Source: Candidatus Moraniibacteriota bacterium (GTDB lineage: Bacteria > Patescibacteriota > Minisyncoccia > Moranbacterales > UBA9337). From it: a DNA stretch of 25,225 bases. The number at the start of each line of letters is the position of its first letter. Position 1 is the first letter of the stretch. The DNA lies in the NCBI GenBank assembly GCA_003507475.1, contig DNVQ01000020.1, positions 1 through 25,225 of the forward strand, in the 5' to 3' direction. The notes below the pieces were generated by a model. That model was not told the origin of the DNA, searched no databases, and saw nothing but the letters and a program-made list of their open reading frames with translations. A program made the translations under genes and the position numbers. Positions 12,729 through 16,885 of the stretch are shown in pieces.

Positions 12729-13910
12729 ATGTTCAATAAAAAAAATAACAAAATAAAAACTGAGAGTGAATATGTGGGATTTGCAAAGCTTCACACAATG
12801 AAAGATGACCTTTCGGCAGAAAATAAAAAAAATAGAGAAGATATAAATGCAGAAGTTAAGGTTGAAAAAAATATTAATGTTGTGGGTAATAGCCCCTTTT
12901 TAAATAACACTGAAAGAGTACTAGACAAAAAAGAATCTAATCTTGATTTGCAAAAAGAAACAAGTGGACAAGATAATAGACAATTTGAAGTTCCTAAATC
13001 AAGTGGTTTTCCCCAAATGCCAAAGCAGAACCAGGATTCATCTTTTAGTAATTCCAATGAAAATATTGTAAGTGAAGATTTTACGGGAAAAAGTGAAAAA
13101 AAATCATTTCTCGCTTATGTAATAATTTTTATAGTAATTTTATTATTAGGTGCAATAGGATATTATGTTTGGATGGCAAAGGGGCAGAAAAATATGGCCG
13201 ATTTTGGATCTGATGCATCTAAGGATTCCAGTGAGGAGAGCGCAATTCCTTCGAATGAAAACTCTAATGGGAATTATTCTGGAGCTATAAATGATTTATC
13301 TGATAATAACGAAGAATTTTCTGAAAAAGTTAATTTTATGATTATAAGCAAAGAAAACTTAAATCAAGCTGGAATTACAAAATCAATTGAAAGTAAATTC
13401 ATAGAAATGGAAAAATATAGCGGAAATCAACTGGAATTCTTAATAGTTGATGAGAATAATAAGCCAATTTTATTTAAGGATTTTATAGACAGCTTCAAAG
13501 TGACTCTTGATTCAGGAACAATGAGCGGTTTATCTGAAGATAACTTCTCCCTCTTTTTATATAAAAATAAAGAAATAAAAAGAGTTGGAATGGTGGTGGG
13601 AGTAAAAAATAGGGACGCACTAAGAAAAAATTTAGCTGCAAATGAGGTATCCTTAATTGATAATATGAATTCTTTGTTTGTTTATAATAAGCCAGATCAT
13701 TCTTTAAATAAAAAGTTTAATGAAAGTGAATATGATGGCAATATCATTAGGTATGTTAATTTGAATAAAAATGCGAATTTGTCCTTAGATTATTCTATTA
13801 TTGGTGATTACCTAATTTTTGCAACTAGCAAAGATAGTGGAAGGTTGATTATTGATAAATTATCCGATGAATCAGAGCCTAGAATTGATATTTTTACTCC
13901 AGAGAATTAA
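12729..13910 (+). CDS. Membrane-anchored protein of unknown function with a large extracytoplasmic domain
   Basis: 393 residues. Residues 1-126 are polar, charged and low in complexity, probably disordered and cytoplasmic. A single strong membrane segment lies at about 127-150. A Ser/Asn/Glu-rich linker (about 151-195) leads to a folded domain of about 190 residues with alternating strands and helices (NQLEFLIVDENNKPILFKDF, FSLFLYKNKEIKRVGMVVGV). It ends in NIIRYVNLNKNANLSLDYSI and YLIFATSKDSGRLIIDKL. Similar IRY...DYAI...SKDS endings occur, as I recall, in other Parcubacteria proteins of unknown function, but I cannot name a family. No lipobox or catalytic motif is visible. It is monocistronic and the last plus-strand gene before the convergence region. 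Confidence 0.85.
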   Translation: MFNKKNNKIKTESEYVGFAKLHTMKDDLSAENKKNREDINAEVKVEKNINVVGNSPFLNNTERVLDKKESNLDLQKETSGQDNRQFEVPKSSGFPQMPKQNQDSSFSNSNENIVSEDFTGKSEKKSFLAYVIIFIVILLLGAIGYYVWMAKGQKNMADFGSDASKDSSEESAIPSNENSNGNYSGAINDLSDNNEEFSEKVNFMIISKENLNQAGITKSIESKFIEMEKYSGNQLEFLIVDENNKPILFKDFIDSFKVTLDSGTMSGLSEDNFSLFLYKNKEIKRVGMVVGVKNRDALRKNLAANEVSLIDNMNSLFVYNKPDHSLNKKFNESEYDGNIIRYVNLNKNANLSLDYSIIGDYLIFATSKDSGRLIIDKLSDESEPRIDIFTPEN

Positions 13911-13934
13911 ATTTAGAGAAGTATTTTGATAAAC

Positions 13935-13954
13935 TGTGGATAAGTTGTGTATAA
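13935..13954. other. Pair of DnaA-box-like 9-mers
   Basis: TGTGGATAA (13935-13943) is the exact reverse complement of the consensus DnaA box TTATCCACA. TGTGTATAA (13946-13954) differs at one base. They lie 11 bases apart in the same orientation, about one helical turn, and are followed by about 80 bases of very AT-rich DNA. No dnaA, dnaN or parAB gene is nearby and genes converge here, so an origin is only a possibility. Confidence 0.45.
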
Positions 13955-14070
13955 AATGTTTAAAAAATATTGATTTTTTTAACAAAATTAATAAATTTTT
14001 CTAAATATTTTTTGAAAATTAAGTTATTACTAAAAATATGGCTTAAAATAAGGGTTTGTGCCAGTAAGAA

Positions 14071-14099
14071 TTGACCAAAGTCCATTTTTTTGTTATAAT
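14071..14099 (+). promoter_or_regulatory. Promoter reading into the gene-free convergence region
   Basis: -35 TTGACC (14071-14076), 17-base spacer, perfect -10 TATAAT (14094-14099). No protein gene follows on this strand before the convergent minus-strand locus, which implies a non-coding transcript starting near 14106. Confidence 0.65.
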
Positions 14100-14270
14100 T
14101 AACATGTAAGTTGAAATTGCATCTTGAAAATTAAATATTTGTTATCTGGTAGAAGAAATCTTTAGCGGTTTTTATCTAAACAGCTCAAGTTTTCTTCTAC
14201 TATTCTCCATGCATCAAAAAGAAGTAAACATACTTCAAAAAAATAAAAAAAACAAAAACAAAAAAACAAA

Positions 14271-14325
14271 TTTATTGGTCCCACCGAGTTTGGGATAAAA
14301 TCATTAATTCGGTGGGACTAATAAA
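14271..14325 (+). repeat. 17-bp near-perfect hairpin
   Basis: The arms 14271-14287 and 14309-14325 are complementary except for one G-T pair, centred on GTCCCACCGA / TCGGTGGGAC, and are followed by ATTTTCTT. It could be a terminator or a stable RNA stem. Confidence 0.75.
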
Positions 14326-14499
14326 ATTTTCTTAAAAATAAAAATAAAAAAAGAAAATAAAGTTCTTTAAAAAAGGGTTCGTCCCAGAGAAAAGTAGAGG
14401 ATAACAAAAGATATATGTAGTCAAAATACATGCAACCTATAACATCTGATTGCCTCTCACCCGGGCTAGGAGGTTTCCGGTTTACATGTTGGTGCATAT

Positions 14500-14580
14500 A
14501 AAAAACACCAGGCGCTTAGCCACTTTATTTTATATTAGGGCCTCTAGCGCCTGGTTTCCATACCTTACCAGGTGTTTTTT
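14500..14580. terminator. Bidirectional terminator with mutually exclusive pairings
   Basis: AAAAAACACC (14500-14509) can pair with GGTGTTTTTT (14571-14580). ACCAGGCGCT (14507-14516) also pairs perfectly with AGCGCCTGGT (14546-14555). A second ACCAGG (14567-14572) competes for CCTGGT (14550-14555) and would form a hairpin directly before the plus-strand T-run. On the minus strand the 10-bp GC-rich stem is followed directly by TGTTTTTT, so termination works both ways between converging transcripts. Confidence 0.65.
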
Positions 14581-14618
14581 AATTTAAGTTAAATTGATTG
14601 ACATTTGAGTGGGTAAAC

Positions 14619-14648
14619 AAAAAAGCGCTTCGTAATGAAGTGTTTTTT
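14619..14648. terminator. Second bidirectional terminator hairpin
   Basis: AAAAAGCGCTTC pairs with GAAGTGTTTTTT through 12 pairs, two of them G-T, around a 5-base loop. T-runs lie on both sides. It backs up the 14500-14580 structure. Confidence 0.6.
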
Positions 14649-14724
14649 GATTTATTATATAGCAACCACCCCTGGGCAGTGTACACGTTTAAATTGTAAG
14701 GCTCTGCTCTTAAATTTTTTTAAC

Positions 14725-14796
14725 TAACTTTTTGACAGCCCGCTTCGCCGAGGCGAGCCCGCTTCGACAAGCTTCAGCGAGGCGAGCAAAAAGTTA
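14725..14796. repeat. GC-rich REP-like element inside a 10-bp inverted repeat
   Basis: TAACTTTTTG (14725-14734) and its exact reverse complement (14787-14796) enclose a GC-rich core with two copies of GAGGCGAGC and two of CCGCTTCG. The core stands out from the AT-rich surroundings. Similar words (GCGGAGCGAGGC) occur at 22722-22733. Confidence 0.65.
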
Positions 14797-14876
14797 CAAA
14801 AACCCTGAAAAGCACAAGGCCTCAGGGCACATCTGCCATACGTACCGTTAAAATATTATTATATATTTATATTGAG

Positions 14877-14937
14877 ATCCCACATAAATGAATTTCTAAG
14901 ACTCGCAAGCTCATTAAGAAATTCTATTTTCTGGGAT
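14877..14937. repeat. Two-tier hairpin
   Basis: An outer stem ATCCCA/TGGGAT and an inner stem GAATTTCT/AGAAATTC are arranged symmetrically around a 19-base loop. It is immediately followed by a smaller hairpin at 14938-14954. Confidence 0.5.
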
Positions 14938-14977
14938 GACACCTTTAGGATGTCAGTTTCTTAACGCTCCCTTTCGA

Positions 14978-15079
14978 CCTGCCCGCCAATGCCTAATTAA
15001 ATAAATATTAAGAAATGAATTATTTATTGTGTTAAATTGATTTAACAAAACATTAATTGATAATGGCAAGGCAGGCGGG
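14978..15079. repeat. GC-rich inverted repeat enclosing about 70 bases of AT-rich DNA
   Basis: CCTGCCCGCCAATGCC (14978-14993) pairs imperfectly, with G-T pairs, with GGCAAGGCAGGCGGG (15065-15079). The loop is almost pure A and T with internal dyads. Confidence 0.5.
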
Positions 15080-15193
15080 GTTGATTTATTTTATTTTAGT
15101 CGTAAGGTGTGAACACTGTATCTGATGTGTGTTTGAAATATATTTAATATGTATTTATATGTATATGAACTTCAAAGTTCCCCTAAAGCGGAA

Positions 15194-15232
15194 AAAATAA
15201 AAACCATCAGCGTTGCTGATGATTTTTATTTT
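15194..15232 (-). terminator. Terminator of the glycan locus (bidirectional)
   Basis: An 18-bp stem with one mismatch, built around CATCAGC GTT GCTGATG, has A/T tracts that give a T-run on both strands. It lies 50 bases after the last minus-strand glycosyltransferase gene. Confidence 0.8.
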
Positions 15233-15283
15233 AGCAAAATTTGAATTCAAACTCATGAAAACATTAAAGTAATCAATCAAGAA

Positions 15284-16885
15284 TTATTTATTATTAAAAT
15301 TCAAAAGAACAAAGCGTTTTATTTTTATAGAATTTTTAAGTTCAAAGTTTTCTTTGTATTTTTCAATATTTTTATCTAAGTTTTTATTTTCAATTATAAC
15401 AAAAAATATTTCTTGGTCCTTGATTTTATCCTGAGACAAGAATATTGATCGGATATCTTCTTTGTTGCAGATATATTCTAAAGATCTTTTGAATTTGAAA
15501 TTTTCTATATAAATTTTTTCTAAGTTACTTTCTTGAGATATTTTTTTGATATGCTCGCACACTTCGTTGAGTTCTCCCAAGCTGATTCCGCCATAGCTAC
15601 TTTCCGAAGTGGTGTAGCTATCTAGATTATAAGTTTTATAGTAATTTAGCAAGTTAAAAAAGCTCACAAGAAGAATAAAAAATGTAATTGGCACAAGATA
15701 TACTTTTTTGAGCGAGGAGTTTAGTAATACCTGAATTATGAAACCAAGAAGTAAATAAGGCAAGAATTGTATTATGATAAAAAAGCGGATATTTAACTCA
15801 TTTCCTACTGGAATAAGGAGCAGGAATGATAATGTGACAAAGGAAATTAGTAAGTATAGGGTATTTTTGCTTTTAGTTAATTTATTTTTCTTGAATATTA
15901 AATATACGCCGCTTAAAAATATTAATAAGGAAGATAAGAATAGAGTTATTTCAGCAACATTTTTAGATTTGAATAGTTTAATTATGTTCAGCCAATTTTT
16001 TTGCGGTTCAATTCCGCTTAGATGATAGGCACTGCCCTGAAGGAAAAATTGAGCGGTATTGGAAATATTTTTTAATATAGATAATTTGCTTTCGGTTTTT
16101 GTTTGAGTGCCAGCAATGAAATCTTGGATGTTTTTGCCCCCGTTATTAGCAGCTTCATAGATAAACGGCAAGTTGAGGAAAATAATTATGCAAAAAAGAA
16201 CAAGGATTTTTTTAAAATTAATTTTTCCTTTTTTAAGATAAAGATAAGCAAGAGTTAAAAAAGTAAAAAGAGGCATTAAGATTAAAAGGGTGGTATGAAG
16301 TTGAATTCCAATGCCAATTATTACTCCTAAGAATATAAAATCACGATATGTAGAGGCGCGATTTATCGCGTCTTGATAGGAATAGTGAATAATTTTATTT
16401 AAAAGTAATAAAAAAGAAAAAACAAAAAAAGGAATGACATTGGGATTCCAAGCGAAATGAGCGTATTTCAGGGCATAAAAAGAAATAGCACAGAGAAATG
16501 TGAGAATAAGAGAGATGCTGGTTGGAAATATCTTTTTAAATAATAAATAGAATAAATAGATTGAAATTGTGGAAAGAATGGGAATAAAAAAGGCAATTCC
16601 GCTAGGAGTAAACCCGAAAATAGCACCGGATAAGTATTCCAAATAATAAAAAGCGGGTCCAAGATTAAATTTTGTGCCACCAGCTTTAGGCCCCAAAAGA
16701 GGGATTTCGCCTTGGCGCATTTCATCAATGATTTGGGCATCTCTCACTTGATCGTTATTAAAACGTAATAGTTCGGGAAAATTATATAATCTCAAAAAAG
16801 CGCCGATTAAAATTATTGATAAGAGAATAAGAGTAGTCTTATTGGAGACCCTACGAAGTAAGAATTTATACGAATTTACGAACAT
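15284..16885 (-). CDS. GT-C type membrane glycosyltransferase (ArnT/PMT-like, GT39-like)
   Basis: 533 residues with about ten membrane segments and a short C-terminal extracytoplasmic tail. The first loop carries RFNNDQVRDA (residues 41-50), in the place of the acidic catalytic loop of GT-C enzymes, which use polyprenyl-phosphate sugars on the outer face of the membrane. GTKFNLGPAFYYLEYLSG and FYALKYAHFAWNPN are typical of this broad group. Acceptor and sugar cannot be deduced. The segment QDAINRASTY (about 171-180) is encoded by an inserted GC-rich palindrome (separate entry). The first codons resemble the word repeats outside the gene (TTCGTAAATTCGT), so the true start could be slightly downstream. 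It is the last gene of the minus-strand locus. Confidence 0.85.
   Translation of the reverse strand: MFVNSYKFLLRRVSNKTTLILLSIILIGAFLRLYNFPELLRFNNDQVRDAQIIDEMRQGEIPLLGPKAGGTKFNLGPAFYYLEYLSGAIFGFTPSGIAFFIPILSTISIYLFYLLFKKIFPTSISLILTFLCAISFYALKYAHFAWNPNVIPFFVFSFLLLLNKIIHYSYQDAINRASTYRDFIFLGVIIGIGIQLHTTLLILMPLFTFLTLAYLYLKKGKINFKKILVLFCIIIFLNLPFIYEAANNGGKNIQDFIAGTQTKTESKLSILKNISNTAQFFLQGSAYHLSGIEPQKNWLNIIKLFKSKNVAEITLFLSSLLIFLSGVYLIFKKNKLTKSKNTLYLLISFVTLSFLLLIPVGNELNIRFFIIIQFLPYLLLGFIIQVLLNSSLKKVYLVPITFFILLVSFFNLLNYYKTYNLDSYTTSESSYGGISLGELNEVCEHIKKISQESNLEKIYIENFKFKRSLEYICNKEDIRSIFLSQDKIKDQEIFFVIIENKNLDKNIEKYKENFELKNSIKIKRFVLLNFNNK
16351..16375. repeat. Palindromic element inside the glycosyltransferase coding frame
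   Basis: The core CGCGATTTATCGCG is a 6-bp perfect inverted repeat with flanks TAGAGG and TCTTG that are nearly symmetric. It is an abrupt GC island in an AT-rich gene and keeps the reading frame open. The sequence recalls a dispersed bacterial repeat of the form GAGACGCGAT...ATCGCGTCTC. Confidence 0.7.

What the first reader, a model, noticed from the sequence alone, without database searches (positions are those of the whole stretch)
14071..14580. Promoter-driven structured RNA of unknown class
A canonical promoter and terminator bound about 475 bases with a 10-bp stem, a 17-bp stem and further helices but no credible protein. Features of tmRNA, RNase P RNA, SRP RNA and 6S RNA were not found. 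The remaining options are a novel regulatory RNA or a highly divergent housekeeping RNA.
Basis: partly seen in the sequence, partly recalled or inferred. Interest (0 to 1): 0.7.

Follow-up and report, generated by a model that had tools for sequence, protein, structure and literature searches.

The report
New large structured RNA in Moranbacteria
A stretch of about 540 bases appears to make a previously uncatalogued, elaborately folded RNA that most genomes of one order of tiny uncultured bacteria carry as a single copy, and one of its strands can pair with either of two partners, which hints at a built-in switch.

Summary
Observation confirmed; interpretation supported. Window 14106-14650 looks like the gene of an independently transcribed, non-coding structured RNA without an Rfam match. 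A covariance model of its 3' core hits 97 of 128 genomes of the order, one match each; a 5' hairpin pattern adds 12, six of them checked by reading. The order is, by inference, that of 'Candidatus Moranbacteria'. One weak core hit, with the rest of the anatomy around it, lies in another class of the phylum. The locus is mostly syntenic. Core helices covary: 25 of 37 pairs change on both sides, 14.8 by shuffling. A promoter with a 17-base spacer stands before 55 of 56 loci, control 2 of 56. A loop-loop contact shows compensated versions. Strand B is complementary to upstream strand A and to distant strand C; at least 9 bases of B serve both pairings in 57 of 57 loci, and this shared part covaries with C. 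tmRNA and RNase P RNA lie elsewhere. 6S and SRP models find nothing, but their controls are leaky. I read it as a constitutive trans-acting RNA scaffold with a switch; expression and partner are unknown.

The parts
14071..14099 (+). sigma-70 promoter TTGACC-17-TATAAT
   Evidence: 11 of 12; promoter with spacer 17 in 55 of 56 related loci
14106..14650 (+). whole predicted RNA gene; start and end inferred from promoter and terminator
   Evidence: fold z -9.25; homologs in relatives
14147..14158 (+). strand A, 5' arm at the base of hairpin H1
   Evidence: A:B duplex -16.5 kcal/mol here
14148..14201 (+). hairpin H1; in most relatives read its loop is UUCCCCCUA, absent in this copy and in L002, L003
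14192..14207 (+). strand B, complementary to both A and C
14237..14270 (+). A-rich linker
   Evidence: an A-rich stretch of this type follows H1 in 58 of 58 looped relatives
14326..14358 (+). A-rich hairpin H4
14362..14385 (+). GUUCUUU...AAAGG and GGG..CCC elements
14385..14405 (+). strand C, distant partner of B
   Evidence: B:C duplex -21.1 kcal/mol here; covaries with B across loci
14412..14500 (+). 3' core, nested helices with CACCCGGGCUA loop
   Evidence: covariation; model R1 match 14413-14559
14507..14555 (+). terminal hairpin E (10 bp)
   Evidence: helix 7: 7 of 11 pairs with changes on both sides
14561..14615 (+). hairpin F, also seen in L002, not clearly conserved beyond
14619..14648 (+). 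likely intrinsic terminator

Best explanation
It is the gene of a new family of large structured RNA, about 540 nt here, transcribed from its own housekeeping-type promoter and acting in trans. Shown from sequence: conservation in most genomes of the order with one core match each, mostly kept synteny, covarying core helices, a covarying loop-loop contact in 37 of 58 looped relatives, and a B strand that is complementary to A and to C over shared bases. Inferred: the RNA is made constitutively and held in a ribonucleoprotein; where present, the kissing loop pins the 5' and 3' domains together; B moves between a local hairpin (A:B) and a long-range helix (B:C), which exposes either C or A to a partner; the UUCCCCCUA loop of most relatives is a second partner-binding site. 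I put about 0.95 on 'real new structured RNA family' and about 0.45 on the scaffold-with-switch mechanism.
For: Distribution: 97 of 128 order genomes by core model, 109 of 128 with pattern-only genomes; no hit outside the order among 285 class genomes. The 5' pattern alone finds 67 loci in the GTDB collection; 56 of 67 also hold the core, in all 56 with the loop within 480 bases upstream on the same strand. Covariation: 25 of 37 pairs with both sides changed, shuffles 14.8 +/- 2.1, slid controls 9-13. B:C duplex better than the mean cross-locus duplex in 57 of 57 loci (-20.8 against -14.5 kcal/mol); A:B likewise (-15.0 against -7.9). Shared bases of B: mean 10.8, minimum 9; that shared part alone against the whole C region: own -13.25, cross -8.35, 57 of 57. 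Loop-loop pairs UUCUGAC/GUCAGAA 10, UUCUGAG/CUCAGAA 10, UUCUAAC/GUUAGAA 3, and single UUCUAAG/CUUAGAA, UUCCGAC/GUUGGAA, UCUUAGC/GCUAAGA and others, 37 of 58 in all by my reading. Promoter 55 of 56 against 2 of 56. In the window the next listed gene downstream is on the other strand, so it is no leader there.
Against: No expression data. Nested folding prefers A:B in 49 of 57 loci, and in the window it has A:B plus a 5-bp remnant of B:C together, so a static fold without a switch is possible. Single cross-locus duplexes equalled the own one in many loci (up to 21 of 51). The loci are related, so 57 of 57 is not 57 independent events. This copy lacks the C-rich loop and the kissing pair, so neither is needed everywhere. 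19 of 128 order genomes show neither core nor pattern. For 16 of the 53 loci that passed the loop-loop score the best 7-mer is A/T-rich, ambiguous or a stem arm and was not counted; 5 failed; no shuffled control was run for that contact. No protein partner was searched for.
Confidence: 0.6

Rival explanations
1. An ornate RNA that forms homo-oligomers: B pairs with A inside a molecule and with C of a neighbour, and the loop-loop contact is intermolecular, as in ROOL and GOLLD.
For: Size, A-rich linker, loop-loop contact, and A and C both complementary to one B strand. Passages on ROOL and GOLLD report intermolecular kissing loops, one called highly conserved (PMC12286853, passages only).
Against: Covariation cannot tell cis from trans. 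The loop-loop contact is missing in this copy.
Confidence: 0.17
2. A structured RNA with one static fold: A:B plus a short B:C helix form together, and no switching takes place.
For: The window's minimum-energy fold has both, 11 and 5 bp; nested folds favour A:B in 49 of 57 loci.
Against: The part of B that is used by A still covaries with C (own -13.25, cross -8.35 kcal/mol, 57 of 57), which a static fold does not need.
Confidence: 0.13
3. A base-pairing regulatory RNA whose C-rich loop covers ribosome-binding sites of mRNAs.
For: UUCCCCCUA-type loop in most families of the order. That C-rich loops of other bacterial small RNAs bind such sites is recalled.
Against: In G047 none of the sites matching the loop complement stands within 70 nt before a start, and AGGGGG is absent just upstream of 509 ORFs. 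In G017 AGGGGG is not enriched upstream of starts and two AGGGGGAA sites lie within 60 nt before one. The loop is missing in this copy.
Confidence: 0.1
4. A highly divergent housekeeping RNA in the place of 6S or SRP RNA.
For: 6S 0 of 19, small SRP 0 of 19, large SRP 0 of 28.
Against: None of these families matches in the interval up to E 10. No SRP-type GTPase motif in two genomes (recalled motif, no positive control), so there may be no SRP to serve. The absence of the models is itself weak, since they ring in 5, 11 and 6 of 14 control genomes.
Confidence: 0.08
5. A cis-acting leader of yraN.
For: In 52 of 62 loci a yraN-like ORF lies downstream on the same strand, in 48 of them starting within 600 bases.
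Against: No yraN-like ORF lies in the held downstream sequence of the window locus and of L002-L004. Hairpins with T runs stand between in many loci (by reading).
Confidence: 0.03

Closest known systems
Ornate large bacterial RNAs (OLE, ROOL, GOLLD)
   Same: Large, multi-helix, loop-loop contacts, function not settled
   Different: No Rfam match here; A/B/C strand competition; mostly syntenic chromosomal single copy; no exact match of the 5' pattern in viral contigs. That it is smaller than these is recalled
raiA motif RNA (ModT)
   Same: Conserved stand-alone structured RNA
   Different: No Rfam match here; ModT is reported from Bacillota and Actinomycetota (PMC11706538, passages)
tmRNA and RNase P RNA
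   Same: One copy per genome and similar length
   Different: Both found elsewhere in G000: tmRNA on C17, RNase P RNA on C62

Membership tests
any Rfam 15 family | match at or above the gathering score | tested here: not met
   none of the 21 matches up to E 10 in 13900-15290 reaches its cut-off; the best, 32.1 bits against 48, lies outside the RNA
tmRNA | matches RF00023 at this locus | tested here: not met
   the genome's tmRNA is at C17:3512-3926, 127 bits; ARAGORN finds none in the window
RNase P RNA | matches RF00010 at this locus | tested here: not met
   at C62:40153-40473, 137.6 bits
6S RNA | matches RF00013 | tested here: not met
   (none in the interval), 0 of 19 genomes, control rings in 5 of 14
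6S RNA | binds RNA polymerase | not testable with these tools
   needs biochemistry
SRP RNA | matches RF00169 or RF01854 | tested here: not met
   0 of 19, control 11 of 14; 0 of 28, control 6 of 14
SRP RNA | an Ffh partner in the genome | tested here: inconclusive
   motif scans of G017 (largest contig) and G047 find none; motif recalled, no profile, no positive control
ornate large RNAs | homo-oligomer | not testable with these tools
   needs native gel or cryo-EM
cis-regulatory leader | followed by a co-oriented gene | tested here: not met
   window: next listed gene downstream is on the minus strand; relatives differ

The most novel reading that the evidence does not exclude
A core two-state RNA machine of the Patescibacteria, at least as old as the split of two of their classes, in which near-identical A and C strands compete for one B strand; most copies outside the order have diverged beyond the present model.
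Probability: 0.3. Interest if true: 0.9.

Novelty: categorically new. Interest (0 to 1): 0.75.

Why it matters
As far as I recall, stand-alone RNAs of this size that most members of a bacterial order keep as one copy are few. One in reduced, mostly uncultured genomes, without a family in Rfam, points to a function worth keeping where much else was lost. The A/B/C competition gives a direct test, and the alignment is rich enough for structure work. If the other-class copy holds up, the RNA is an old feature of a large branch of bacteria.

Tried and rejected
Rejected: divergent tmRNA or RNase P RNA. Not supported: 6S and SRP, with leaky controls as stated. A second copy in the own genome: the pattern hit at G000:C20 shows none of the other elements. 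An A-rich-motif search for the RNA in other orders of the class gave counts that by eye look like the reversed control (no tally computed). An exact-7-mer A/B/C scan of the 30 loci it fetched found none, but that scan finds only 11 of 67 known positives, and random sites give 25 of 600, so it is weak. Loop targets in G017 and G047: none convincing. Exact 5' pattern in viral contigs: 0. Literature: eight searches, of which searches returned no paper and searches listed 20 of 1,491 and 10 of 110; I saw listings and abstract starts, and passages of three papers. No listing I saw describes such an RNA in Moranbacteria; subscription papers are not held.

Limits: the core model is weak outside the order; G449, same genus as G488, holds the RNA at 81% DNA identity but was not among the three model hits. 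Dropped rows: of 62 loci, L001, L002, L003, L015 (no C-rich loop) and L092 (N run) are not in the 57-locus tests; of 58 looped loci two lacked upstream sequence for the promoter test. One search stopped with an error part-way and was redone. An earlier count said that all but two GTDB loci are named Moranbacteria or Patescibacteria; that is wrong, see the full report.

Full report
What was checked. The interval holds a promoter 11 of 12 to consensus at 14071-14099. Its transcript folds better than shuffles (z -7.6 for 14106-14582; -9.25 for 14106-14650; 0 of 100 shuffles each); the 3' part alone only mildly (z -2.12). Of closed frames of 20 aa or more overlapping it, the longest is 59 aa and antisense. 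At gathering level the window's only Rfam hits are three tRNAs; with permissive filters only sub-threshold matches appear.

Where it occurs. A DNA search of 54 genomes, the own one included, matched 37 at E 0.001 or better; many of those matches are short and A-rich, so I built a covariance model (R1) from 18 cores chosen by reading. R1 hits 97 of 128 genomes of the order, one match each. The 16-base C-rich hairpin pattern, one mismatch allowed, matches in 79 of 128, including some isolated matches elsewhere in genomes. Twelve genomes have the pattern and no R1 hit (G014, G016, G036, G052, G053, G073, G090, G107, G115, G116, G117, G126), which makes 109 of 128. In six of the twelve I read the RNA around it (G016, G036, G090, G116; G014 and G053); the other six I did not read. 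R1 hits 17 of 285 class genomes, all in the order, and 3 of 286 phylum genomes: two in the order and G488 of another class at E 7e-4, a value at which about 0.2-0.3 chance hits are expected over so many genomes. Around the G488 hit I read a promoter TTGATT-17-TATGAT, A, B, C, an A-rich stretch and the terminal hairpin, and the same in G449 of its genus. The large searches used strict filters and scored a limited number of candidates per genome, so absences are soft.

Names. The pattern gave 67 loci in the GTDB contig collection. By title 38 are Moranbacteria or Moraniibacteriota, 7 Patescibacteria group, 4 Parcubacteria group, 1 Elulimicrobium, 1 Paceibacterota, 14 just bacterium or uncultured bacterium, 1 Saccharibacteria (L137) and 1 Micavibrio (L141). 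L137 and L141 have ORF390 and yraN-like neighbours, so I take them as misnamed or misbinned. 56 of the 67 also hold the R1 core. Three of these contigs have the lengths of contigs of the unnamed order (43389, 29432, 8972); from this I infer that the window's order is that of Candidatus Moranbacteria.

Neighbourhood. Among 62 loci (56 plus L001-L005 and L015), 55 have an ORF390 homolog upstream, 52 a yraN-like ORF downstream on the same strand, and 37 a pnp ORF further upstream, one of these on the other strand (loci differ in length, so these are minima). ORF390 (window 12729-13910) has no Pfam hit; Pfam confirms pnp in the window, and UPF0102 (yraN) and a dksA/traR zinc finger in L090. In the window the next listed gene downstream is on the minus strand.

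Structure. Core alignment A1, 18 sequences: 92.3% of cells paired, 25 of 37 pairs with changes on both sides, covariation score 0.446 against 0.223 +/- 0.013 shuffled and at most 0.145 slid. The structure was derived from the same alignment, which favours it against the slid versions, and shuffles do not keep relatedness. Promoter: in 55 of 56 loci the best site scores 10 or more of 12, and every best site has spacer 17 although 16-19 were allowed; in two loci (L112, L121) it is not of the TTGAC type.

Competing strands. In 57 loci B, the strand after the H1 hairpin, pairs with distant C at -20.8 kcal/mol on average against -14.5 with C of loci whose B differs at 5 or more of 18 positions; own beats the cross mean in 57 of 57, in L099 by less than the rounding. 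The duplex program lets helices run past C, so these are not B:C energies alone. Single cross duplexes equalled the own one in many loci (21 of 51 for L096, 21 of 47 for L099). A:B: -15.0 against -7.9, 57 of 57. At least 9 bases of B are used in both duplexes in every locus. The shared part alone still covaries with C: own -13.25, cross -8.35, 57 of 57. In some loci the strands have changed in concert, for example CUUUUCCG/CGGAAAGG in L121. Nested folding picks A:B in 49 of 57. The window's copy has both: A:B -16.5 and B:C -21.1; its nested fold combines A:B with a 5-bp B:C remnant. The loci are related, so these counts are not independent events.

Loop-loop contact. A hairpin loop 5' of the A-rich linker and one before the core carry complementary 7-mers. 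By my reading, 37 of 58 looped loci have a recognisable pair in several compensated versions; 16 have A/T-rich, ambiguous or stem-arm matches that I did not count, and 5 failed; no shuffled control was run. By reading both partners are missing in the window's copy and in L002, L003, L004 and L012; in L007 the 3' hairpin is gone and the 5' hairpin remains without the loop motif.

Function. Not tmRNA or RNase P RNA, which sit elsewhere. 6S: 0 of 19; small SRP 0 of 19; large SRP 0 of 28; these models ring in 5, 11 and 6 of 14 control genomes, so the absences are weak. G017's main contig and G047 show no SRP-type GTPase motif, by a recalled motif without positive control. The C-rich loop has no evident start-site targets in those two genomes. 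What remains is a trans-acting RNA with housekeeping-like conservation and competing helices. I commit to a ribonucleoprotein scaffold with an A/B/C switch; homo-oligomer formation and a static fold are the main rivals; partner and process are unknown. Novelty is rated for the RNA family, which matches none in Rfam; large structured RNAs of unsettled function are themselves a known sort of thing.

Noticed in passing
G017 (L223-L264) and G047 (L267-L313): No Ffh/FtsY-type GTPase motif and no SRP RNA model hit in 19 and 28 relatives; the order may lack the signal recognition particle. Recalled motif, no profile, leaky model controls.
   Followed up: partly
12729-13910: ORF390, a protein with one apparent membrane segment (by reading) and no Pfam hit, has homologs upstream of the RNA in 55 of 62 loci.
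   Followed up: partly
14271-14325 and L086, L100, L111, L114, L137: A hairpin inserted in the A-rich linker; in several listed relatives it has GGGACCUACU/AGUAGGAUCCC-like arms (by reading), as if a small repeated insert.
   Followed up: no
14737-14790: GC-rich, repeat-like stretch (CCCGCTTCG...GAGGCGAGC) in AT-rich surroundings.
   Followed up: no
L137, L141: Contigs titled Saccharibacteria and Micavibrio carry the RNA with Moranbacteria-type neighbours; probably misnamed or misbinned.
   Followed up: partly
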